The notes beneath the pieces were generated by a model. It saw only the letters and a program-made list of their open reading frames with translations. It had not been told where the DNA came from and searched no databases. Of a stretch of 11,079 nucleotides of DNA, positions 1-11,079 are shown piece after piece. Both the position numbers and the translations under genes were made by a program. Source of the stretch: Rubrivivax sp. (lineage in GTDB: Bacteria > Pseudomonadota > Gammaproteobacteria > Burkholderiales > Burkholderiaceae_C); contig JADZCL010000111.1 in assembly GCA_020851615.1 (NCBI GenBank), forward strand, positions 1 to 11,079. The letters run 5' to 3'. The first letter of the stretch is position 1; every line of letters starts with the position of its first letter.

Positions 1-751
<751 letters not shown>

Positions 752-888: not shown

Positions 889-2082
889 TCAGCTGCAGGA
901 CTGCACCTTGAATTCCACACGCCGGTCGAGTGCATCACGCATGTCGTCGGTGCCGGTGCCGACGATGGTCTCGTCCCAGCCATGCCCCTCGGTGCGCACG
1001 CGCTGGGCGCGCGCCAGTGCCGGCGCCTCGTGCACCAGGCGCTCGCGCACCGCTTGCGCCCGCCGCAGCGACAGGGCGCGGTTGTACTGCTCGCTGCCGG
1101 TCTTGCTGGTGTGGCCGACCACGGTCACGCACATTGCCGAGGCCTGCGCCGCGCGCGCGATCTGGCGCAGCCACATCGCGTAGGTGTCGACCTCGCCGAG
1201 GAAATCGGTCGAGCCGGGGCGAAAGAGGATCTTCACCGCCAGGTTGCTCGTGGCCAGGCCCAGCGCCGCGATCTTGCCGAAGGCCTCCTCGGCCTCCGCG
1301 GTGCGGCCCAGCTTGACGTTGGCCATGTACAGGCCGTTGAAGGTGCGCAGTTGCTGGCCGTCCTCGCGCTGCGCCGCCGTGCTCATCAGCTTGTAGGCCT
1401 CGTCCCAGCGCTCCTGGTTGTAGGCCTCCTGCGCCTGCGCCAGCAGCGCCGCGGTCGGGATCTGCTCGAGGTAGAGCGCATCGGCACGCTGGCCCACGGG
1501 CTTCTCGGTGGTCTCGATGTAGCCCTGCACCGCGCGGTCACGCACCAGCGACGGGCTCTCGGCGTAGAAGCGCGTGGGCTCGAGGTTGAGCTGCGCGTCG
1601 TTCACCGGAGCCACACCGCGCGCCAGCACCAGGCCGCTGCTGCGATCCGAGAGCGCCAGCGTCAGCCGGTATTGACCCGCACGCCCGTCCTGCGCCGTCA
1701 GCGTGCCGTTGAGCAGCCAGGCCGCACTTCGCGTGCCGGCCTCGTCGAAGGGCAGCAGGCGCAACCGGGGCAGCACCTTGGGCACCGCCGCGGCCAGCGC
1801 CTGCGCGGCGCGCTCGGTGGCCTTGGTCTGCTGGCCGCTGCGGCCATCGAGCAGCGGGTCGACGATGGCCGTGCGGTCGACACCCGTCTGCGCCCCGAGC
1901 TGGCGCGCGATGTCCAGCAACGCCCCGTTGACCGCACCCTCGAGCGTGGCATCCACCGGTGGCGGGGGCGGCGGCGGGGGGGGTGGCTTGGCGCAGCCGC
2001 TCAGGGCTGCAGGCAGCAGCAACAGTGCTGCCCGTCGCCGTATCAGGCTCAGGCCGAGATCGCGTCCGTTGGCATGACTCAA
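889..2082 (-). CDS. OmpA-family peptidoglycan-associated lipoprotein
   Basis: Predicted outer-membrane lipoprotein that anchors to peptidoglycan through a C-terminal OmpA-like domain. The N-terminus has a basic stretch (LIRRR), a hydrophobic segment and a lipobox ALSGC, followed by AKP and a run of ten prolines. A middle region of about 230 residues of unknown role includes a possible tetratricopeptide-like helix pair (AYNQERWDEAYKL, LGRTAEAEEAFGKIAALG). The OmpA domain covers roughly the last 110 residues, with VVGHTSKTGSEQYNRALSLR and a closing RRVEFKV. The start is uncertain: GTG 2109, ATG 2106 and TTG 2082 are all in frame. I favour TTG (2082-2080) because GGAGG (2092-2088) lies 5 nt upstream and the resulting signal peptide is 29 residues. 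The gene is transcribed away from the nucleotidase gene and ends 30 bp before the metH riboswitch. Its specific function is not recognised. Confidence 0.85.
   Translation of the reverse strand: MSHANGRDLGLSLIRRRAALLLLPAALSGCAKPPPPPPPPPPVDATLEGAVNGALLDIARQLGAQTGVDRTAIVDPLLDGRSGQQTKATERAAQALAAAVPKVLPRLRLLPFDEAGTRSAAWLLNGTLTAQDGRAGQYRLTLALSDRSSGLVLARGVAPVNDAQLNLEPTRFYAESPSLVRDRAVQGYIETTEKPVGQRADALYLEQIPTAALLAQAQEAYNQERWDEAYKLMSTAAQREDGQQLRTFNGLYMANVKLGRTAEAEEAFGKIAALGLATSNLAVKILFRPGSTDFLGEVDTYAMWLRQIARAAQASAMCVTVVGHTSKTGSEQYNRALSLRRAQAVRERLVHEAPALARAQRVRTEGHGWDETIVGTGTDDMRDALDRRVEFKVQSCS
1976..1983 (-). repeat. Homopolymeric C8 tract (coding strand) inside polyproline codons
   Basis: Eight consecutive G on the plus strand, C on the coding strand, fall in the proline-rich linker just after the lipobox of the OmpA-type lipoprotein, within a wholly C/G stretch from about 1962. 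A slipped-strand change of one base would shift the frame near the start of the protein. The tract itself is seen; a phase-variable role is only a possibility. Confidence 0.5.
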
Positions 2083-2318
2083 ACTGTCCTCCGCGCGGAG
2101 CACCATCACCGATGGCGGGCCCTGATTCTGCCCACACGCCCGCTCTTCGGACAGCCCACCTGCGCAACACGAGACCCGCGCGTCGAAGGCGCACGGGCTG
2201 CGCCAGACCGCTTGCTATGCTCAAGACGCGGCAGCTGCGGTCCTTGCCCCGTACCGAGCGGCCTGTCTCGCCAATGCCCGCCCTTGCCTGCCCTTCACAC
2301 GACCGACCAGCGACAGCG
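2083..2318. other. Divergent intergenic region between OmpA-type and nucleotidase genes
   Basis: This 236-bp gap must hold both promoters. On the plus strand TGCTATGCT (2213-2221) looks like an extended -10 box (TATGCT at 2216-2221) for the nucleotidase gene, but no -35 box is clear. On the minus strand a 12-bp palindrome CTCCGCGCGGAG (2089-2100) overlaps the ribosome-binding site assigned to the TTG start of the OmpA-type gene. It could fold into a small 4-bp hairpin. No recognisable regulator site was found. Confidence 0.3.
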
Positions 2319-3989
2319 ATGACGCGCCGCGCGCGCCCCCTGTGGCCTGCCCTGCTGCTCGCACTGGCCTGCCTCACCGGCTGCGCCATGCCGCAGGCGA
2401 CGGCTGTCACGGTCAAGGTGCTGGCCATCAACGACTTCCACGGCAGCCTGCGCACGCCGCCGGGCAGCCTGCGCATCCCGGACCCGGCCGACGCGAGCCG
2501 CACGCTCACCGTGCGCGCCGGCGGGGCCGACCATCTGGCCACGCTGATTGCCGAGTTGCAGGCGAAGAACCCGCTGCACGTCTTCGTGGCGGCGGGCGAT
2601 CTGGTGGGGGCGTCCCCGCTGCTCTCGGCCCTGTTCCACGATGAGCCGACGATCGAGTCGCTCTCCCGCATGGGGCTGCGCGTCAGCGCCGTCGGCAACC
2701 ACGAGTTCGACCGCGGCAGCGCCGAGTTGCTGCGCCTGCAGCGGGGTGGCTGCGCCGCCGACGGCTGCCGCGGGCCCCAGGCCTTTGGCGGCGCCGGTTT
2801 CCAGTACCTGGCCGCGGGCACACGCGACACGCGCAGCGGCCAGCCGCTGCTGCCGGCCACGCATGTCGAGCGCTTTGCCGGCGTTGCGGTGGCCTTCATC
2901 GGCCTGACCCTGAAGAGCACCCCCAGCATGGTCGCGGCCCGCGGCGTGCGCGGTCTGGCCTTTAGTGACGAGGCGCAGACGATCAACGCGGAGGTCGCCC
3001 GCCTGCGCGCACAAGGCGTTGCGGCCTTTGTCGTGCTGCTGCATCAGGGCGGCTTCCCCGCCGAGGGACCGCGGGTCGAGCCCGACGGCTGCACCGACGT
3101 CGACGGCCCCATCATCAAGCTCGTGCCGCGGCTGGACCAGGCCGTCGCAGTCGTGGTCACCGGCCACACGCACCGCGCCTACAACTGCCGCATCGATGGC
3201 CGGCTGGTCACCAGTGCGGGCAGCCATGGCCGGCTGCTGACGGAGATCGACCTGGAGCTCGACCCCGCACGGGGCCGCGTCGTGCAGGCGCAGGCCCGCA
3301 ACCACGTCGTCGATGCCTCGCGCTACGCCAGGGACCCGGCGCAGTCGGCGCTGATCGAGGCCTACGAGCGCCTGGCGCAACCCTTGGCGCAACGGCGCGT
3401 GGCGCGGCTGGCGGGCGCCCTGTCGCGCGAGGCCAACGCCGCCGGCGAGTCCCCGCTCGGGCAGGTGATCGCCGACGCGCAGCTCGAGGCCACGCGCAGC
3501 GCCGGGGCCCAGGTGGCGTTCATGAACCCGGGCGGCATTCGCGCCTCACTGCCGCGTCCGGCCGACGGCTGGCTGAGCTTTGAGGAGCTGTTCGCCGCCC
3601 AGCCCTTCGGCAACGCGTTGGTGACCATGACCCTGAGCGGCGCCCAGATCATCGAGTTGCTCGAGCAGCAGTGGCACGGCCAGCCGCTGGCCGCGGGCCG
3701 TGTGCTGCAGGTCAGCAGCGGCTTCACCTACACCTGGGACGCCAGCCGCCCGCGCGGGCAGCGCGTGCTGGCCGGCAGCCTGCGCCTGCATGGCAGCGCC
3801 ATCGCCGACGACAGCCGGGTGCGCGTCACCGTCAACAGCTTCATGGCCGATGGCGGCGACCATTTCCGCGCCCTGCGCCAGGGCAGCGAGCGCCACACCG
3901 GCATGCAGGACATCGAGGCGCTGGAGGCTTATCTCGCGGCGCGGCCCAACCCGCTGCCGCTGCTGCCGCGGATCACGCGCCTGCACTGA
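2319..3989 (+). CDS. 5'-nucleotidase / UshA-type metallophosphoesterase lipoprotein
   Basis: Two-domain 5'-nucleotidase family enzyme that hydrolyses nucleotides or related phosphate esters outside the cytoplasm using two metal ions; the exact substrate cannot be read. The 556 residues begin with a lipoprotein signal peptide ending in LTGC (Cys22), so it is probably membrane-anchored rather than freely periplasmic. Metallophosphoesterase motifs are in order: NDFHG (Asp39, His41), GD (93-94), GNHEFD (126-131), a lone metal-ligand His242 in LLHQGG, and GHTH (282-285). The C-terminal nucleotide-binding domain shows NPGGIR (from 403), PFGN, and NSFMADGGDHF (506-516), the last including the Phe expected to stack on the base. 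Length matches UshA (about 550). Start ATG 2319 was chosen because it gives a 21-residue signal peptide. It lacks a good ribosome-binding site, and ATG 2274 is an in-frame alternative. Convergent with the DUF2249 operon. Confidence 0.92.
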   Translation: MTRRARPLWPALLLALACLTGCAMPQATAVTVKVLAINDFHGSLRTPPGSLRIPDPADASRTLTVRAGGADHLATLIAELQAKNPLHVFVAAGDLVGASPLLSALFHDEPTIESLSRMGLRVSAVGNHEFDRGSAELLRLQRGGCAADGCRGPQAFGGAGFQYLAAGTRDTRSGQPLLPATHVERFAGVAVAFIGLTLKSTPSMVAARGVRGLAFSDEAQTINAEVARLRAQGVAAFVVLLHQGGFPAEGPRVEPDGCTDVDGPIIKLVPRLDQAVAVVVTGHTHRAYNCRIDGRLVTSAGSHGRLLTEIDLELDPARGRVVQAQARNHVVDASRYARDPAQSALIEAYERLAQPLAQRRVARLAGALSREANAAGESPLGQVIADAQLEATRSAGAQVAFMNPGGIRASLPRPADGWLSFEELFAAQPFGNALVTMTLSGAQIIELLEQQWHGQPLAAGRVLQVSSGFTYTWDASRPRGQRVLAGSLRLHGSAIADDSRVRVTVNSFMADGGDHFRALRQGSERHTGMQDIEALEAYLAARPNPLPLLPRITRLH

Positions 3990-4020: not shown

Positions 4021-4251
4021 TCAAGTCTTGCCGATCTTCACGCGCCAGACGGCCGGGCCGGACTCCAGGTAGTCCCAGCTGAACCGGCCGCTGTGTTCGG
4101 CATCGAACTGGTAGTACAGCGGCTTGGGGTCGTGGTCGTTGATGAGCACGAAGCTCTGGCCGGGTGACAGCGCGCGCCACTTGCCGAAGATGGTGCTGTG
4201 GCGTTGCATCGGAACCAGTTGCCGGACGTCAAGGTTTTCAGCGTCGCTCAT
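4021..4251 (-). CDS. Single-domain DUF2249 protein
   Basis: This 76-residue cytoplasmic protein of the DUF2249 family opens with LDVRQL and carries the family core VLINDHDPKPLYYQFDAEH followed by WDYLESGPAVWRVKI. The family has a TusA/SirA-like layout, but no cysteine is present, so persulfide transfer of the TusA type looks unlikely. Similar proteins are often encoded beside denitrification or nitric-oxide-stress genes; that is recalled, and the biochemical role is not known to me. It is the last gene of the operon. Its start ATG (4251-4249) overlaps the end of the upstream small gene by 14 bp, with AAGGAG 7 nt before the ATG. A related tandem-domain protein is encoded two genes earlier. Confidence 0.85.
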   Translation of the reverse strand: MSDAENLDVRQLVPMQRHSTIFGKWRALSPGQSFVLINDHDPKPLYYQFDAEHSGRFSWDYLESGPAVWRVKIGKT

Positions 4252-4483
4252 CGGGTTGCTCCTTTACGGGCGTGGGGGGAAGGGTTTGCCGCCGGCGCGG
4301 GTTGGTGAGGTTGTGCATGGCACCGTTCAGGCGCTCGGCTTCACGCGGGTGCTCGTCGCGCAGCAACAACCAACCCTGCGCCGCCAGGCGGCACGCGCCG
4401 TCGATGTCGCCGGCGTCACCGATGCGCAGCAGGGCCTGCACGAAGAAGCGGTTGAGCGCAGACAGGGTGTCGGGGGCTTCCAT
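4238..4483 (-). CDS. Small conserved-looking protein of unknown function (81 aa)
   Basis: I do not recognise this protein. It has 81 residues, no signal peptide and no membrane segment. A mostly helical N-terminal 55 residues (LNRFFVQALLRIGDAGDIDGACRLAAQGWLLLRDEHPREAERLNGAMHNL) is followed by a short basic, proline-rich tail. There are single Cys and His residues but no metal-binding motif. The gene starts 6 bp after the stop of the DUF59 gene and overlaps the following DUF2249 gene by 14 bp, which strongly suggests co-translation within the operon. A weak ribosome-binding site (GGGGTGA) precedes the ATG. The overlap pattern and coherent helical sequence argue that it is real. Confidence 0.75.
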   Translation of the reverse strand: MEAPDTLSALNRFFVQALLRIGDAGDIDGACRLAAQGWLLLRDEHPREAERLNGAMHNLTNPRRRQTLPPTPVKEQPDERR

Positions 4484-4489
4484 CGCCGC

Positions 4490-4798
4490 TCACCCCTGCA
4501 CGCCGAAGTGTTGCTTGGCCTGCGGGCTCATCGCGTGCGGGCCCCAGGCGGGCTCCCAGACCAGGTCGATGTCGACGCGGCCGATGCCGGCCACGTCAAG
4601 CAGGCGCTGCTCGACACCGCCCTGGATCACGTCCGAGGCCGGGCAGCCGGGTGTCGTCAGCGTCATGGTGACCTTGGCCGTGCTGCCGTCGATGTCGACG
4701 CCGTAGACCAGGCCGAGGTCGACGATGTTGTAGCCGAGCTCGGGGTCGAAGACGTCCTTCAACGCCTCGAGCAGATCGTCCCGGGGTGCGCTGCTCAT
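4490..4798 (-). CDS. DUF59 / MIP18-family iron-sulfur cluster assembly factor (SufT/PaaD-like)
   Basis: This 102-residue cytoplasmic protein of the MIP18/DUF59 family takes part in maturation of iron-sulfur proteins. Family hallmarks are visible: DPELGYNIVDLGLVY (residues 18-32), TMTLTTPGCP with the conserved Cys52, and VWEPAWGP near the end. Length is typical of stand-alone members. The start ATG (4798-4796) overlaps the TGA of the upstream tandem DUF2249 gene in an ATGA arrangement, so translation is probably coupled. It resembles SufT and PaaD but is not next to suf or paa genes here. Within an operon that appears to respond to nitric oxide, a role in repairing or loading Fe-S centres damaged by NO is plausible, but inferred. 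Confidence 0.9.
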   Translation of the reverse strand: MSSAPRDDLLEALKDVFDPELGYNIVDLGLVYGVDIDGSTAKVTMTLTTPGCPASDVIQGGVEQRLLDVAGIGRVDIDLVWEPAWGPHAMSPQAKQHFGVQG

Positions 4799-5322
4799 AC
4801 CGGGTCCTTCGGCCGTGCGGCACGGCGAATCTGCACGTGGTAGTCGCTCGCGCTGCGCTTGTCGACGCGATAGGGGTGGCCGCGCTCATCGAGCTCCGGA
4901 TACAGCAGCAAGGGCTCGCGGTCGTAGCGGGCCGCCAGCACCTGGCCGACCTCGAGTTCCTCCAGCGCCTCGAAGGTGAGCACGAGCGGCTCCGGCGGCG
5001 GCAGGGTGCGCAGGTCGACGCTGCGGCTTGGCGCTGGCCAGGCCGTGGTGTCGCCGGCCGCGGGTGCGGCAGCGGCGGCGCCGGCCACGGGCACGCCCGG
5101 GGTGAGGATGATCTCCCACGCGCCGCCGTCGATCTGCTTCTCCTGGTGCGTGAAGCCGCGGCGCTCCATCACGGCGTATAGCGGCACTGGGTTGAACGGC
5201 GACAGCAGCCGCAGCGCCTGCCCTTCGTCCAGCGCGGCTGTCGCCTGCATGATCTGCTCGAGAGGCTCGCCGCCGGCCTGCAGGATGGGTCGCACGTCCA
5301 GCGTGCGCGGTGAAATGTTCAT
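4795..5322 (-). CDS. Tandem DUF2249-domain protein
   Basis: This 175-residue cytoplasmic protein contains two DUF2249-type domains. The first (about residues 8-70) has LDVRPILQAGGEPLEQIM, GQALRLLSPFNPVPLYAVMERRGF and AWEIIL. An Ala/Pro-rich linker (about 74-98) leads to the second (about 103-172), with VDLRTLPPPEPL, GQVLAARYDREPLLLYPELDERG and YHVQIRR. No cysteine occurs at the position where TusA proteins carry the catalytic one; the first domain reads GGEPL there. The start ATG (5322-5320) has AAGGAG 7 nt upstream and overlaps the stop of the membrane-protein gene as ATGA. The same kind of overlap links its stop to the DUF59 gene. The function of the family is not established to my knowledge. 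The tight coupling implies a shared pathway with the membrane protein. Confidence 0.88.
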   Translation of the reverse strand: MNISPRTLDVRPILQAGGEPLEQIMQATAALDEGQALRLLSPFNPVPLYAVMERRGFTHQEKQIDGGAWEIILTPGVPVAGAAAAAPAAGDTTAWPAPSRSVDLRTLPPPEPLVLTFEALEELEVGQVLAARYDREPLLLYPELDERGHPYRVDKRSASDYHVQIRRAARPKDPV

Positions 5323-6695
5323 GACGTGCTCCTTGGGGCTGCTGGGGATCGATCGAGTGCGCCCGCCACGCCTGGTGCGCCGGGCATCCGCAGCGGCTTG
5401 AGCTGGAGATTGGGATCGGGGTGGCGGGATCGCCAGAGCTCGCCGCCGATCAGCAGCGTGGCCACGAGTTGCAGACCGACCGCGGCCCGCAACCAGGCCT
5501 CCAGCCCCAGCACCAGGCAGCCGCTGGCGAGCACGACGGCGCCGAAGTACAGGGCGAACCACGGCCTTGCCCGGCGCTCGTCCACCAGATCCTGCACACG
5601 CAGCACCGGCCCCTTGCCGAGGCGGGCACCGAACTTCTCCAGCCATGTCAGGAAGGGAACGATCTTGTAGAGCTGGCTCAGGCCCAGGCCTGTCAGTCCG
5701 CCAAAGACGAGCAGGTAGACGACCGCCACGGCGATGTGATCGAGCACGCCCAATGCCGCCGCCAGCAGGCCACCCACAACGGCCAGTGCGAACAAGGCCA
5801 GCGCCACCCCGGCCGTGATGCTGTTGAGTTCCAGATGCCGCCGCGCGCGTGTTCGGAAGAAGCGCACGATGTCGTACAGGTAGCACGCCACGCCCAGCGT
5901 GACCAGGCCGGCCGCCAGCGCCAGCCCGGCAAGCGCGCTTGCCCCGGCGAAGACGCGGACGGTCTCGACCCCGATCAGCAGCACGAGCCCGCCGACGGTG
6001 AGGACCAGCGCAGCCCGCGTCGTGCGGCGCGGCTCGTCCGGGGCCAGCATGAACATCGTCAACAGGCGGTAGCTCACCCCCATCACGGTCAGCGTGAACC
6101 AGCCGCCCAGGCCCGCAGCCAGGTGCAGGCCCAGTCCCGCGGCGGTCAGCCGGCCCAGAAAGGCCGGGGTTCGGGGCAGCGCGAAGTGCAGCGCAAAGCC
6201 AAGGCCGATCAAGCCCGTCAACAGCAGGAAGCCCAGGCTCCAGACGACGAAGACCGCCGCCATCGGCAGGGGCCGTGCCCGCCACAGCGTGATCCAGAGG
6301 TTGGCGGCACCGAGTGCGAAGCCGATCAGCACCAGCGCTCCGCCCAGCGGCAGCCAGGCGAGCGCGAGTGCCGCGGCACCGCCCAGCGCCAGGAAGCCCA
6401 GCAGCATCGCGCCAAGCCCCGCCACGATCGCAACCATCGCCACGAGCGGCAGCTGCTGGCTGTGCAGTCGGGTGTTGGTGATGACGGGCGCAAATTGATA
6501 GAGCGCACCCAGCATCAACAGGCTCAGCCAGCCGATGGTGACAAGGTGCACGGCAATGAGCGTCGCCGGCGCAAAGACACCCGCCTGCAGATCCGCAACG
6601 CCCAGCAACAACAGCAGCTGCGCCAGCAGCAGGGCCGCCAGGGCGAGTCCGAAGTGCGCCATCGTCCAGCGCGAGACACCGGCTCGGACCATCAT
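5319..6695 (-). CDS. 12-TM heme-copper-oxidase subunit I-like membrane protein (NO/denitrification-type cluster)
   Basis: This 458-residue integral membrane protein has about twelve hydrophobic helices. A repeated pattern occurs in helices 2, 6 and 10: His50-Leu with Gly-Trp (55-56) and GALYQFAP, His191-Leu with Gly-Gly-Trp (197-199) and GVSYRLLTM, and His320 with GLSQLYKIVPF. The W-to-G and W-to-Y spacing is identical in the first two copies. One His in each of helices 2, 6 and 10 mirrors the ligand-bearing helices of heme-copper oxidases and NO reductases. The His-His pair of helix 7 and the HxH of helix 10 are missing, so normal oxidase catalysis is unlikely. Start ATG 6695 has GGAG 8 nt upstream; a TTG at 6713 would lie inside the operator. 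First gene of the five-gene operon. The family placement is by pattern; a heme-binding or NO-related role is inferred. Confidence 0.8.
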   Translation of the reverse strand: MMVRAGVSRWTMAHFGLALAALLLAQLLLLLGVADLQAGVFAPATLIAVHLVTIGWLSLLMLGALYQFAPVITNTRLHSQQLPLVAMVAIVAGLGAMLLGFLALGGAAALALAWLPLGGALVLIGFALGAANLWITLWRARPLPMAAVFVVWSLGFLLLTGLIGLGFALHFALPRTPAFLGRLTAAGLGLHLAAGLGGWFTLTVMGVSYRLLTMFMLAPDEPRRTTRAALVLTVGGLVLLIGVETVRVFAGASALAGLALAAGLVTLGVACYLYDIVRFFRTRARRHLELNSITAGVALALFALAVVGGLLAAALGVLDHIAVAVVYLLVFGGLTGLGLSQLYKIVPFLTWLEKFGARLGKGPVLRVQDLVDERRARPWFALYFGAVVLASGCLVLGLEAWLRAAVGLQLVATLLIGGELWRSRHPDPNLQLKPLRMPGAPGVAGALDRSPAAPRSTS

Positions 6696-6711: not shown

Positions 6712-6736
6712 AAACAGGCATTTGCAATGCCTGTTT
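6712..6736. promoter_or_regulatory. Perfect 10-5-10 palindrome, NsrR-like operator of the DUF2249 operon
   Basis: The arms AAACAGGCAT (6712-6721) and ATGCCTGTTT (6727-6736) are perfect inverted repeats around TTGCA. Aligned on the central G (6724), the left half AACAGGCATTT agrees with 9 of 11 bases of the remembered NsrR half-site AAGATGCATTT, and the right half with 8 of 11. It does not fit the FNR/Dnr pattern TTGAT-N4-ATCAA. The palindrome lies 16 bp upstream of the first gene of the operon and overlaps its presumed -10 box, the layout expected for a repressor. The regulator could also be another Rrf2-family protein. Confidence 0.7.
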
Positions 6737-6776: not shown

Positions 6777-7529
6777 TCAGCGCCCTTCGAAGCGCGGCGT
6801 GCGCTTCTGGGCGAACGCGGCAAGACCCTCCTGCAGATCCGCCGACCCGAGGCAAGCCGCAAAGTCGCGCGCCAGCGCCTGCCCATCGAGCCGCCCGCTG
6901 GCGATGCGGTCCAGGTGGCGTTTCATGCCTTGCACCGCCAGGGGCGCCAGCGCGCACACCTGCGCCGCCACGGCCGCGGCACACGCGTCGAGTTCAGCCG
7001 CCGGCACGAGGTGCGTGAGGAAGCCGATGGCCTTCATCTCGGCGGCATCGATGCGCTCGGCGGTGAGGAAGAGGCGCTTGGCCGCATCCACACCCAGCCG
7101 GGTGACGTAGCGCTCCAGCCCGCTGCGGTAGAAGTGCAGGCCCAGACGCGCCGCCGGCATGGCCAGCGCGGTCGCCGGGGAACCGATGCGAAAGTCACAG
7201 GCCAGCGCCAGATCGGTCGCCCCGCCGTAGACCCCACCCTGCAACACCACGATCGTCACCGGCCGCGCGGCGTGCACGCGCTCGACCACGGCCTCGAAGG
7301 CGGCCACGTGCGCGGCGTCCACCTGGCCGACGTCGAAGCCGCTGCAGAAGTGGCGCCCCTGCGCACGCAGGAGCAGCACGCGCACGGCGGGGTCGGCGTC
7401 GACCGCGGCCAGGTGCGCCGCCAGCGCATGCAGGTCCTGCGGCTCCAGGCGGTTGGCCTGCAGCGGACGCTGCAGCGCAAGGGTCGCCACGGTGCCGGCG
7501 ACGGCAAGGGTGGGGGTGTGCGTGGGCAT
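6777..7529 (-). CDS. Crotonase-fold protein (enoyl-CoA hydratase/isomerase family), atypical active site
   Basis: A 250-residue member of the enoyl-CoA hydratase/isomerase superfamily, expected to act on an acyl-CoA in the cytoplasm. The first oxyanion-hole motif GRHFCSGFDV (58-67) and the second region LQGGVYGGATDLALACDFRIG (96-116) are clear. The sequence ALAMPAARLGLHFYRSGLERYVTRLG follows. At the positions of the two catalytic glutamates of rat enoyl-CoA hydratase it has Asp106 (usual GGGxELA is GGATDLA) and Ala126 (usual PExxLG is PAARLG). Ordinary hydratase activity is therefore doubtful, and the reaction is unknown. Full length for the family. The start ATG (7529-7527) has no visible ribosome-binding site, and a hairpin directly precedes it. 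It is on the same strand as the DUF2249 operon but separated by that operon's own promoter and operator. Confidence 0.88.
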   Translation of the reverse strand: MPTHTPTLAVAGTVATLALQRPLQANRLEPQDLHALAAHLAAVDADPAVRVLLLRAQGRHFCSGFDVGQVDAAHVAAFEAVVERVHAARPVTIVVLQGGVYGGATDLALACDFRIGSPATALAMPAARLGLHFYRSGLERYVTRLGVDAAKRLFLTAERIDAAEMKAIGFLTHLVPAAELDACAAAVAAQVCALAPLAVQGMKRHLDRIASGRLDGQALARDFAACLGSADLQEGLAAFAQKRTPRFEGR

Positions 7530-7635: not shown

Positions 7636-7741
7636 TGATGATTCACAAGTAGCGGCTGTGATGCGTCGTGCCGGCACGGTCTGCCCGGCCATCTGCTCGA
7701 CAGAGGCCGCCTGGCTCGACCGCCCCGACAAGGAGACACGC

Positions 7742-9682
7742 GTGCAGCAATTCATCGCCAATCTGCCCCTGCGGCGGAAGTTCCTGCTGTTGGCCGTCAT
7801 CGCCGCGTTCATGCTGGCCTTGCCGACCAGCCTGATCCTGCTCGACAGCCTGGACGAGGTGGCACAGGCGCGCGCCCAGCTCGGCGGCCTGCCGCCGGCG
7901 CGGGCGGCAGCGCAATGGATACACGTGACGCAGCAGCATCGCGGCCTGTCGGCGGTCGAACTCGGCGGCGACGGCAAGGCGACGGGCACCCGGCGTGCAG
8001 CGCGAGCCGAGACCGACCGCATCGTCACACGTATGACAGAAGCCGTTGCCGCATTGGGTGACAGCGCGCTGAACGCGGCGGCCGGCCAGCTCAAGCAGGA
8101 CTGGCAGGCGCTGGCCGATGCCGTGGAGAACCACACGGTGGATGCCGCGCAGAGCCTGGAACGCCATACCAGCCTGATCAGCCGGCAGCTGCAGCTGTTG
8201 AAGGACATCACCCACACCTCGACGCTCGTGCTGGCGCCGGACCCGGCAACCTACTTCCTGCAGGCCGCGGTCCTGGGGGAACTGCCTCGGCTGACCGAGC
8301 TCTTCAGCCAGGCTCGCGGGCTGGGCGTGGGGCTGCTGTCGCAGGGCCGCGCCAGCGCCGAGGACCGGGTGCGCATTGCGCAGCTCGGCGTCGGTGTGTC
8401 GGCCATTCTCGGCGACGCACGCCAGGATCTGGAGCTCGCGATGCAGGACGACGCCGGCGCCCGTGCGCGTATCGGTCCGGCCATCGAGGCGGCCGCCCAG
8501 GCCGCACGCGAGGGCCAGCAGGTCGTCGACGAGCACATCGTGCGCGCCCAGACGCTGGCCTTCGCGCCCGCGCAGTACTACGAGATCGTCACGCAGGCGA
8601 TCGAAGGCCAGTTCAAGCTCGTCGAGGCGGCCAGCGAAACCCTGGCGCTCAACCTCGAGCGCGATCTCGCACGCGCCCGCAGCCGCATGTTCACCGTCCT
8701 TGCCGCCTGTGGCGCGCTGGCGCTGCTGGCGCTGTGGGTGATGTGGACCATCAGCCGCAGCACTACGGCGTCGATGGCGCAGGCCCTGCGCATGGCGCAG
8801 GCCGTGGCCGGCGGCGACCTGACGGTGGGTGTGCAGGCCGCCAGCCGCGACGAGGTCGGCGACCTGCTGCGCGCGCTGGCGCACATGAAGCAAGGCCTGG
8901 TCGACGTCGTCGGCAGCGTGCGCGGCAACGCCGAGTCCGTGGCGATGGCGAGCACCCAGATCGCGCAGGGCAATCACGACCTCAGCCAGCGCACCGAGGA
9001 GCAGGCCAGCGCGCTCGAGGAAACCGCCGCGTCGATGGAGCAGCTCGGGGCAACCGTCAAGCACAACGCCGACAACGCGCGTCAGGCCAATCAACTCGCC
9101 CAGGGCGCATCGACGATCGCCGCGGCCGGCGGCGCCGTCGTGGCGCAGGTCGTGGGCACGATGAAAGGCATCAACGAAAGCAGCCGCCGCATTGCCGACA
9201 TCATCGGCGTCATCGACGGCATAGCCTTCCAGACCAACATCCTCGCCCTCAACGCCGCCGTCGAGGCCGCGCGTGCAGGCGAGCAGGGACGCGGCTTTGC
9301 GGTCGTCGCCGGCGAGGTGCGCAGCCTGGCGCAGCGCAGTTCCGACGCGGCCAAGGAGATCTCGACGCTGATCACCGCCAGCGTCACCCAGGTCGAGCAG
9401 GGCTCGAGCCTGGTCGACCAGGCGGGCACGACGATGGAGCAGGTGGTGTCGGCGATCGGCCGCGTGACCGACATCATGGGCGAGATCAGCCATGCCAGCG
9501 TCGAGCAGAGCGCGGGCGTGAGCCAGGTCGTCACCGCGGTCGGCGAGATGGATCGCGCCACGCAGCAGAACGCGGCGCTGGTGGAGGAGAGTGCCGCCGC
9601 CGCCGAGAGCCTGCGTCTGCAGGCACAGCAGCTCGTCGACGCGGTCGCCGTCTTCAAGCTCACCACCGTGGCGTCGCATTGA
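7742..9682 (+). CDS. Methyl-accepting chemotaxis protein
   Basis: A 646-residue transmembrane chemoreceptor that signals to CheA/CheW. Transmembrane helix 1 is about residues 14-34. A periplasmic sensing region of about 280 residues follows, with TQQHRGLS (63-70), reminiscent of NIT-type helical sensors. Transmembrane helix 2 is about 316-338, then a HAMP domain to about 391 and a cytoplasmic coiled-coil hairpin. The hairpin tip is the strongly conserved [22 protein letters not shown] (493-514). Methylation helices such as [22 protein letters not shown] flank it. The protein ends in [10 protein letters not shown] with no CheR-tethering NWETF-type pentapeptide. The GTG start (7742-7744) was chosen over an ATG at 7658 because AAGGAG (7730-7735) is 6 nt upstream and the membrane helix follows directly. 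The PAS sensor gene begins 13 bp after its stop. The ligand is unknown. Confidence 0.95.
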
Positions 9683-9695
9683 GCCTGCCCATGCG

Positions 9696-11079
9696 ATGAA
9701 CGGTGTGCCGCCTCGCCCCACGCCGCTGCGGCTGGTGCTGTCGCAGGCCTGCAGCGGCCGGCGCCTGCGCGCGCTTGCGGCGGTCACGCTCACGCTCACG
9801 CTCACGCTGGCACTGGCGCTGCCGCTGGTGCTCGGGGCCGGCGCCATGGCGCCGGCTCGGTGGGCTCTGGCGGCCGCACTCGCCACGCTCGTGCTGCTGC
9901 TGGCCTGCCGCGTGCTGCGCCGGCGCGGCACCGTCGTCTTCGAATCGACCCGGCCACAGTCGGTCGAGTCGGTCGTGCGCGAAGGCACACGCAACTACCG
10001 CCGCGTGCGCCTGACGCTCTACGGCGTGCTGGCTGCGCTGTGCTGCAATTTCTTCCTCCAGAACTGGCTGGCGCGCCAGACTGAAGAGAGCCGGCGCCTC
10101 GAGAATGACGCCATCGAACTGGCAGCGACACAGCGCTGGCTCAGCCAGCGCATCGCACGGCTGGCCCAAGCGCCCACGCGGGCCAACGGCGCTTCTGCGC
10201 GCGAACTGCTGGCCACCCTGGCGCAGTCCGACATGCAGGCCCAACGGCTGCGCGAGCTCCTGCGCGCGCAGGACCTGCTGGAGAACCCGGCGCACGCCGA
10301 GGTCAGGCTGGCGTGGCAGGACTGGTCGGCCAGTCGTGCAGACATGGCAGCGGCGGTCCGCACACTGGCCGCGGCCGTCGCGCAGGCCGGGCCTCTTGCT
10401 GGCGGAGTCGACGAGGGCATCGGGAGCGCCGTGGGCACGCACGCCGACGTGGCGCTCTCCCACGTCCAGGCCCTGCTGGATGCCATGCACGCCACGGCCG
10501 CACGCAGTCATGCCGCGCGCGTGCGGCAGATGCAGCTGTGGGGCGTCCTGAACATCGCGCTGTTGTCGCTGCTGGCCCTGGTGGCCGTGGAGCCGGCGGT
10601 GCGCTCGATCCGGCGCCAGTACCGGCGCCTGGCCACGCAGGCCGTCGAACTGCAGCGCCTGGCGCTGGTGGCCGAGCGCACGACCAACGCGGTGCTGTTG
10701 ATCGACGAGCAGCGCTGTGTCGCCTGGGCCAACCAGGCCTTCACCCGCATCACCGGCATTGCGCCGGCCGACGCGGTGGGCCGCGACGCGCTGAGCGTGC
10801 TGCAGCCCGCCGACGGGGACATCGACGCCACGGCCCACCTGCAGCGCTCGCTGCACAGCGCACCCGGCGGCGGCCGCCTGCAGATCCGCCACCGTGCCGC
10901 GGACGGACTCGAGGTCTGGCTGGACATCGACATCCAGCCGCTGCACGACGACGAAGGCGCCACGCGCGGGCACGTGGTGGTGTCGGTCGACATCACCCCG
11001 TTCAAGCAGGTGCAGGCCGACCTGCGCATCGCAGCCATTGCCTTCGACTCGCTGGGGGGCATCGCCATCACCGATGCAA
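9696..11079 (+). CDS. Membrane PAS-domain sensor protein, 3' end outside window
   Basis: An open reading frame of 461 codons that continues past the window. Predicted helices are at about 26-48, 54-74 and 105-124. A long helical, probably periplasmic region (125-280) contains QRWLSQRIARLA (146-157), resembling the QRMLSQRIAK motif of PilJ/NarX-type sensor modules. A fourth helix is at about 281-300. A PAS domain follows (about 328-445, with VLLIDEQRCVAWANQAFTRITG and a PAC-like VVVSVDITPFKQVQADL). A second PAS begins at about 446 (IAAIAFDSLGGIAITDA). That last wording is typical of Burkholderiales proteins ending in GGDEF and EAL domains, so a c-di-GMP enzyme is my first guess; a histidine kinase is possible. 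The start ATG 9696 lacks a strong ribosome-binding site and probably relies on coupling with the chemoreceptor gene just upstream. Confidence 0.85.
   Translation, partial: MNGVPPRPTPLRLVLSQACSGRRLRALAAVTLTLTLTLALALPLVLGAGAMAPARWALAAALATLVLLLACRVLRRRGTVVFESTRPQSVESVVREGTRNYRRVRLTLYGVLAALCCNFFLQNWLARQTEESRRLENDAIELAATQRWLSQRIARLAQAPTRANGASARELLATLAQSDMQAQRLRELLRAQDLLENPAHAEVRLAWQDWSASRADMAAAVRTLAAAVAQAGPLAGGVDEGIGSAVGTHADVALSHVQALLDAMHATAARSHAARVRQMQLWGVLNIALLSLLALVAVEPAVRSIRRQYRRLATQAVELQRLALVAERTTNAVLLIDEQRCVAWANQAFTRITGIAPADAVGRDALSVLQPADGDIDATAHLQRSLHSAPGGGRLQIRHRAADGLEVWLDIDIQPLHDDEGATRGHVVVSVDITPFKQVQADLRIAAIAFDSLGGIAITDA
9785..9808 (+). repeat. Four tandem copies of the hexamer CACGCT
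   Basis: Four exact, contiguous CACGCT units lie in the first predicted transmembrane helix of the PAS sensor gene, where they encode alternating Thr-Leu. Gain or loss of a unit would lengthen or shorten the helix by two residues without a frameshift. Confidence 0.7.
9837..9856. repeat. Perfect 20-bp palindrome within the PAS sensor gene
   Basis: GCCGGCGCCA is followed at once by its exact reverse complement. It lies within the codons for the loop between the first two membrane helices (Ala-Gly-Ala-Met-Ala-Pro-Ala). It could form a stable GC-rich hairpin in the mRNA or a protein-binding site; nothing else supports a function. Confidence 0.5.

What the first reader, a model, noticed from the sequence alone, without database searches (positions are those of the whole stretch)
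4021..6695. Five-gene overlapping operon: oxidase-like membrane protein, two DUF2249 proteins, DUF59 factor and an unknown 81-aa protein
Three of the four junctions overlap and the fourth is only 6 bp. This implies stoichiometric, coupled synthesis of an atypical heme-copper-oxidase-like membrane protein with soluble partners of unknown function and an Fe-S assembly factor. With an NsrR-like operator in front, this points to an NO- or nitrosative-stress system, for example sensing or scavenging NO at the membrane and repairing Fe-S centres. I know of no described mechanism for this set.
Basis: partly seen in the sequence, partly recalled or inferred. Interest (0 to 1): 0.75.

Follow-up and report, generated by a model that had tools for sequence, protein, structure and literature searches.

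The report
NO-linked heme-oxidase-like five-gene operon
A conserved but unstudied set of five overlapping bacterial genes, built around a membrane protein that looks like a respiratory oxidase stripped of its catalytic metal site, tends to occur in denitrifying bacteria and to carry nitric-oxide-type switches, so it is probably a helper system for coping with that gas.

The parts
5319..6695 (-). 12-TM heme-copper-oxidase-like protein (HCOH type), 458 aa, invariant His: H50 and H191 only
4795..5322 (-). double-domain DUF2249 protein, 175 aa; second domain TusA-like with PPEP in place of CPEP
4490..4798 (-). DUF59 / FeS_assembly_P protein, 102 aa, GCP cysteine invariant in 14 of 14
4238..4483 (-). 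orphan 81-aa protein (P81), predicted three-helix bundle, invariant C31 and H57 in 45 of 45
4021..4251 (-). single-domain DUF2249 protein, 76 aa, invariant H18 and H40 (10 of 10)
6712..6736 (.). perfect 11-3-11 palindrome in the promoter region, NsrR-type variant operator (14/18)

Best explanation
The operon encodes an NO-responsive accessory module of denitrifiers. NO relieves an NsrR-type repressor (an NnrR-type activator in some rhizobial-type versions), and the five proteins are made together. The membrane protein is a catalytically silent heme-copper-oxidase homologue. It is predicted to hold one heme b between H50 (helix 2) and H191 (helix 6), near the periplasmic side. It binds NO or exchanges electrons there and presents a conserved, basic cytoplasmic face to the soluble partners. 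The DUF2249 proteins (TusA-like fold, no sulfur-transfer cysteine in the TusA-like domain), the DUF59 protein (Fe-S assembly family, cysteine kept) and the helical 81-aa protein form the cytoplasmic part, which most likely repairs or re-matures Fe-S or heme proteins damaged by NO. Shown: gene set, co-conservation, predicted fold, residue pattern, operator motifs, genomic association. Inferred: regulation itself, heme binding and its position, the physical complex, and the repair function.
For: Five-gene order in 12 of 16 loci with tight junctions. NsrR-type site of 14/18 or more in 12 of 16 loci, one of them 18/18 (L066), against 0 of 97 control promoters (p 4e-13). An NsrR-like gene divergent from the operon in L017. 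The own genome has an NsrR-like gene with a CX7CX5C motif and a 16/18 site in front, followed by a hemerythrin and a DUF2249 gene. Rhizobial copies lie in nor-hemN / nnrS-nirK or nos islands. NirS or NirK in 13 of 15 carriers against 66 of 196; within the family all 8 genomes with any HCOH match (4 close, 4 distant) have one, against 62 of 192 (p 2e-4). 12-helix HCO fold with only H50 and H191 as invariant His in 72 sequences, and still in 76 including four distant ones. PPEP for CPEP. DUF59 Cys in 14 of 14. A distant HCOH subfamily is preceded by a DUF2249-type gene in 8 of 8 loci.
Against: I found no expression, binding or spectroscopic data for this set. The predicted heme is near the periplasmic face while the partners are placed in the cytoplasm, so direct electron transfer to them is not obvious. 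No nor/nir/nos gene was recognised in the flanks of the five-gene loci. L012 (9/18), L017, L067 and L068 (13/18 each) lack a good NsrR site, and the window's site differs from the canonical one before the same genome's nsrR-like gene. G205 showed neither NirS nor NirK over cut-off, and G201 only a NirK-like match below cut-off. None of the NsrR-like hits (14 of 15 carriers at E 1e-20 or better, G203 none) passes the NF008240 cut-off. The register of H191 rests on a profile match of prob 0.8, and unit 1 also aligns weakly (prob 5.1) with NorB helix 2, which would put H50 at another pore.
Confidence: 0.4

Rival explanations
1. Maturation factor: the module inserts or delivers a cofactor (heme, Fe-S or Cu) for denitrification enzymes such as NOR, NirS/NirK or NosZ, rather than repairing NO damage.
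For: Position beside norCBQD-hemN, nirK-nirV or nosRZDFYL-apbE in rhizobial islands; DUF59 is an Fe-S assembly family; [quoted passage not shown]
Against: Associated with different enzymes in different genomes: NirS in 10 of 15 carriers, NirK over cut-off in 3 others, the nos island in L024. Of 58 NirS genomes in the family sample only 3 (G000, G094, G107) carry the close version.
Confidence: 0.25
2. Sensor module: the membrane protein detects NO or another N-oxide at its heme and signals through the DUF2249 proteins to gene expression, as proposed for DrpA/DrpB of Thermus.
For: DrpA/DrpB contain DUF2249 and absence of both makes dnr and nar expression nitrate-independent (PMC6282519, abstract and passages); only two invariant His and no catalytic site; positively charged cytoplasmic loops.
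Against: No DNA-binding, kinase or output domain among the five proteins by Pfam; DUF59 has no obvious place in a sensor; NsrR/NnrR-type regulators already supply NO control.
Confidence: 0.22
3. The TusA-like DUF2249 proteins and DUF59 form a sulfur-relay or Fe-S assembly line that is only coincidentally encoded with the membrane protein.
For: Second DUF2249 domain matches TusA structures at E 4e-4 and Pfam TusA above cut-off (34.5 against 28.6 bits).
Against: The TusA active Cys position is Pro in 13 of 13 aligned proteins; a DUF2249-type gene is also paired with distant HCOH genes, with no DUF59 match beside them.
Confidence: 0.08
4. The membrane protein is itself a terminal oxidase or NO reductase.
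Against: Only two invariant histidines where that class has six (recalled); Pfam COX1 18 bits against a cut-off of 34.8; no COX2/NorC-type partner in the operon.
Confidence: 0.05

Closest known systems
HCOH proteins (HCO Homology families of Pei et al. 2014; content recalled, paper not held)
   Same: 12 TM in three 4-helix units, two conserved histidines, one heme proposed (recalled); link to DUF2249 as stated in PMC11218638
   Different: Here a defined five-gene operon with DUF59 and P81, NsrR-type operators and a deduced pore for the heme; whether Pei et al. describe any of this could not be checked
COG4309 genes of the NsrR/NnrR regulons (Rodionov 2005, PMC1274295; COG4309 = DUF2249 recalled)
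   Same: Same domain family, same regulators predicted, denitrification context
   Different: There often co-transcribed with norB in betaproteobacteria; here with an HCOH gene, DUF59 and P81
NnrS
   Different: No Pfam NnrS hit and no meaningful profile similarity (prob 1.0); NnrS is a separate neighbour in rhizobial islands
cNOR NorB / cbb3 CcoN
   Different: Most of the heme and CuB/FeB His ligand set absent
DrpA/DrpB of Thermus thermophilus (PMC6282519)
   Same: DUF2249-containing proteins; the double deletion grows poorly with nitrate
   Different: No HCOH, DUF59 or P81 partners mentioned in the passages read; DrpA is periplasmic
TusA
   Same: Sequence similarity of the second DUF2249 domain
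   Different: Catalytic Cys replaced by Pro

Membership tests
Heme-copper oxidase / NO reductase catalytic subunit | 12-TM fold | tested here: met
   AF2 model and PDB comparison
Heme-copper oxidase / NO reductase catalytic subunit | Six conserved His for low-spin heme, high-spin heme and CuB/FeB (recalled) | tested here: not met
   Only H50 and H191 at 95% or more in 72 sequences
Heme-copper oxidase / NO reductase catalytic subunit | Pfam COX1 gathering score | tested here: not met
   18 bits, cut-off 34.8
HCOH three-unit family (Pei 2014) | 12 TM, three homologous units, two conserved His (definition recalled) | tested here: met
   unit 1 vs 2 prob 60.8, E 8e-5; unit 1 vs 3 prob 53, E 1.4e-4; unit 2 vs 3 not significant
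HCOH three-unit family (Pei 2014) | Binds heme | not testable with these tools
   Needs purified protein
NnrS | Match to the NnrS Pfam model | tested here: not met
   No NnrS hit at E up to 1; hhalign prob 1.0 against 4 NnrS sequences
DUF2249 (PF10006) | Score over gathering cut-off | tested here: met
   114.9 and 102.5 bits against 29.5
TusA sulfurtransferase | Pfam TusA gathering score | tested here: met
   34.5 against 28.6 bits for the double DUF2249 protein
TusA sulfurtransferase | Catalytic Cys in the CPxP motif | tested here: not met
   PPEP, first two P invariant in 13 of 13
DUF59 / FeS_assembly_P | Pfam score and conserved Cys | tested here: met
   74 bits against 23.5; Cys in 14 of 14
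SufT / PaaD equivalogs | NCBIfam equivalog cut-offs | tested here: not met
   All below cut-off; best TIGR02945 100.3 of 143.4 bits
NsrR regulon | Operator in front of the operon | tested here: met
   12 of 16 loci at 14/18 or more, 0 of 97 controls; window itself exactly 14/18
NsrR regulon | NsrR in the same genome | tested here: inconclusive
   Rrf2-family gene on C220, 111.5 bits against NF008240 cut-off 182, CX7CX5C motif
NsrR regulon | NO-dependent derepression | not testable with these tools
   Needs experiment

The most novel reading that the evidence does not exclude
A previously undescribed NO-inducible membrane complex in which a heme-copper-oxidase scaffold has lost its catalytic site and holds its single bis-histidine heme in the third pore, between the first and second four-helix units, a pore that canonical oxidases and NO reductases leave empty (recalled). 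The complex couples periplasmic NO to a cytoplasmic DUF2249-DUF59-P81 machine that repairs nitrosylated Fe-S or heme proteins. Basis for the pore: H50 lies 5 residues before the conserved Gly, like the second His of NorB's HGH, and H191 lies 7 before, like the first; symmetry puts the two facing each other across the unit 1/unit 2 interface.
Probability: 0.25. Interest if true: 0.8.

Novelty: new variant of a known kind. Interest (0 to 1): 0.52.

Why it matters
DUF2249 proteins are found with denitrification genes in bacteria and archaea and are still described as of unknown function; the non-catalytic heme-copper-oxidase homologues are, as far as I know, equally unexplained. This operon ties the two together with an Fe-S assembly-family factor and a new small family, behind a likely NO-regulated promoter. 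A relative sits in a genetically tractable denitrifier, Sinorhizobium meliloti 1021 (pSymA 688273-689589), so the question of what these proteins do for NO handling becomes directly testable. If the heme-pore deduction holds, it also shows a heme site of the oxidase fold not used by the enzymes I know.

Tried and rejected

Counts and drops: duplicates removed before counting were L003=L013=L063, L004=L015, L002=L021, L064=L019 (a 200-base middle stretch shared). G204 was dropped from the NirS count because L013 equals L003 (G070). L023 and L026 are the same species. The raw NirS tally is 11 of 16 at E 1e-3; I count the 10 with E 1e-140 or better and leave out G211 (1.5e-7). For carriers I counted only NirK over the curated cut-off, for the control group any NirK at E 1e-40 or better (17, of which 10 over cut-off); this favours the control. 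Of 110 plasmid records with a relative I opened 4, and the pSymA 1021 record carried no annotation there. The control group is the window's family, while some carriers belong to other families; within the family alone the close version gives 4 of 4 against 66 of 196, p 0.014. The 97 control promoters come from ten loci in which genes were called by my own simple script. The motif test used 11 of 13, before L066-L068 were added; one search repeats it with 12 of 16.
Full report
What is there. The window is a complete 11,079-base contig (C111) of a 2.56-Mb, 76%-complete genome in 435 contigs. On the minus strand five genes run from 6695 down to 4021 with junctions of -4, -4, +6 and -14 bp. Pfam assigns DUF2249 to the second and fifth proteins and FeS_assembly_P (DUF59) to the third; the fourth has no family; the first matches COX1 only below threshold.

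The set is conserved. Searches gave 16 non-redundant loci with a close HCOH protein of the window's type. The named ones are mostly titled as Burkholderiales-type genomes; they include gamma proteobacterium HdN1 (L018) and a MAG titled Rhodobacteraceae (L017). Twelve have all five genes in the same order: the window, L009, L011, L012, L013, L014, L015, L016, L017, L021, L067 and L068. L010 ends with its contig after four genes, L019 lacks P81, and L018 and L066 show only the first three. L015 and L016 are close relatives. In the rhizobial type (L020, L022, L024, L025, L026/L023) HCOH, double DUF2249 and DUF59 are together in all five, the single DUF2249 gene is upstream in three, and P81 was not detected. 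P81 was found in exactly the 4 of 200 family genomes that carry the close HCOH protein (p 1.5e-8); the large protein collection gave 43 homologues besides the window's own. A more distant HCOH subfamily (24-30% identical to the window protein for the four aligned) is directly preceded by a DUF2249-type gene, recognised with my own profile, in 8 of 8 loci; by ORF limits seven overlap and one (L008) leaves 16 bp. So an HCOH-DUF2249 partnership seems older than this operon.

The soluble partners. The double DUF2249 protein's second domain resembles TusA (over the Pfam cut-off), but where TusA has CPEP it has PPEP, with the first two prolines invariant in 13 of 13, so it should not be a TusA-type sulfur carrier. 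DUF59 keeps its GCP cysteine in 14 of 14. The single DUF2249 protein keeps H18 and H40 in 10 of 10, and P81 keeps C31 and H57 in 45 of 45. P81 is predicted as a three-helix bundle (helices within residues 4-60). To the eye P0002-P0005 show no hydrophobic N-terminal stretch, so I place them in the cytoplasm; no signal-peptide program was run.

Regulation. Scored against the consensus of Rodionov et al. 2005 (PMC1274295, sections 9 and 12 and other passages read; I added the flanking AA/TT), the 200 bp before the operon hold a match of 14/18 or better in 12 of 16 non-redundant loci: window 14, L002 16, L003 14, L004 17, L009 17, L010 14, L011 14, L014 15, L016 17, L018 17, L019 15, L066 18. The misses are L012 9, L017 13, L067 13 and L068 13. 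Of 97 promoter regions of other genes in ten of these loci none exceeds 13 (p 4e-13). The five rhizobial-type loci reach 9-11, and two of five show NnrR-like boxes of 11/14 or better, in line with the NnrR regulation of alphaproteobacterial denitrification genes described in PMC1274295. In L017 an NsrR-like gene (133.9 bits, below the 182 cut-off) is divergent from the operon. NsrR-like genes were found in 14 of 15 carriers, none over the cut-off; since PMC1274295 reports NsrR in all betaproteobacteria it examined, this adds little. In the window's genome the NsrR-like gene lies on C220 with a 16/18 site in front and a hemerythrin and a DUF2249 gene behind; its CX7CX5C cysteines match the spacing I recall for Bacillus NsrR. 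The window's own site differs symmetrically from the canonical one and is unique in 200 genomes, so NsrR control of this very copy is plausible but not secure.

Genomic association. Rhizobial copies are embedded in norE-CBQD-hemN ... nnrS-nirK-nirV islands (Shinella L025, S. meliloti L026; the hemN and nnrS-nirK parts in Ensifer L022), follow nosRZDFYL-apbE (Aminobacter L024), or lie beside Crp/Fnr, pseudoazurin and NnrS (L020). Among 15 non-redundant carrier genomes 10 have NirS and 3 others a NirK over cut-off. In 200 family genomes NirS occurs in 58 and NirK (E 1e-40 or better) in 17, union 70, of which 4 are close carriers. The comparison 13/15 against 66/196 gives p 7e-5, and 4/4 against 66/196 within the family p 0.014; counting the four family genomes with a distant HCOH match as well, 8/8 against 62/192, p 2e-4. 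Against this: in the flanks of the five-gene loci no nor/nir/nos gene was recognised with the references used, and only 3 of 58 NirS genomes of the family sample have the close version, so it is an optional accessory.

Interpretation. I commit to an NO-responsive accessory module in which a non-catalytic heme protein of the oxidase fold works with a cytoplasmic DUF2249/DUF59/P81 group, most likely to restore NO-damaged Fe-S or heme proteins. The association with NO metabolism I hold at about 0.85, the repair mechanism at about 0.4. Maturation of denitrification enzymes and DrpA/DrpB-like sensing (PMC6282519, abstract and passages) are serious rivals.

Known and new. A COG4309 gene (DUF2249 by recall) in the NsrR regulon, often with norB, was predicted in PMC1274295. 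DUF2249 linked to the heme-copper oxidase superfamily is credited to Pei et al. 2014 in PMC11218638 (passages read; the Pei paper itself was not readable, and its content is recalled). DUF2249 genes are induced during denitrification in Haloferax mediterranei (PMC11218638, passages). I found no description of the five-gene operon, of P81, or of the heme position in the searches listed under Tried and rejected. I therefore rate it a new variant of a known kind.

Noticed in passing
window 7661-9682 (+): Methyl-accepting chemotaxis protein with a NIT (nitrate/nitrite sensing) domain, E 4.3e-12, about 1 kb upstream of the operon.
   Followed up: partly
window 6777-7529 (-): Enoyl-CoA hydratase gene co-directional with and just upstream of the operon; the palindrome lies in the gap between them.
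   Followed up: no
window 889-2106 (-), 2319-3989 (+), 9696-11078 (+), 2-751 (-): OmpA-family protein, 5'-nucleotidase-type metallophosphatase, PAS-domain protein (runs off the contig) and pterin-binding enzyme.
   Followed up: no
L054 4483-5861 (own genome, C220): nsrR-like gene, hemerythrin and single DUF2249 in a row, with a 16/18 NsrR-type site in front at 5873.
   Followed up: partly
L055 3670-4416 (C95); L009 8937-9683; L012 9053-9811; L021 5542-6324: About 250-aa DUF2249 protein (three domains by Pfam in L055, L009 and L012; L021 by phmmer only), divergent from the HCOH operon in L009, L012 and L021; function unknown.
   Followed up: partly
L025 13389-13670 and L026 14674-14955: Rhizobial single-DUF2249 proteins end in a cysteine-rich tail (CxCCCGSDH) that the eight five-gene-type proteins aligned lack.
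   Followed up: no
L017 6447-9034: COX1/COX2 pair plus a TlpA-like gene beside the NsrR-like gene, resembling (from recall) a norSY-senC NO reductase arrangement.
   Followed up: partly
L037 1123-3815: NorB-like protein with a cytochrome c gene (two matched stretches) upstream in a carrier genome, about 32% identical to rhizobial NorB.
   Followed up: no
L005-L008, L069-L072: Distant HCOH subfamily preceded directly by a DUF2249-type gene in 8 of 8 loci.
   Followed up: partly
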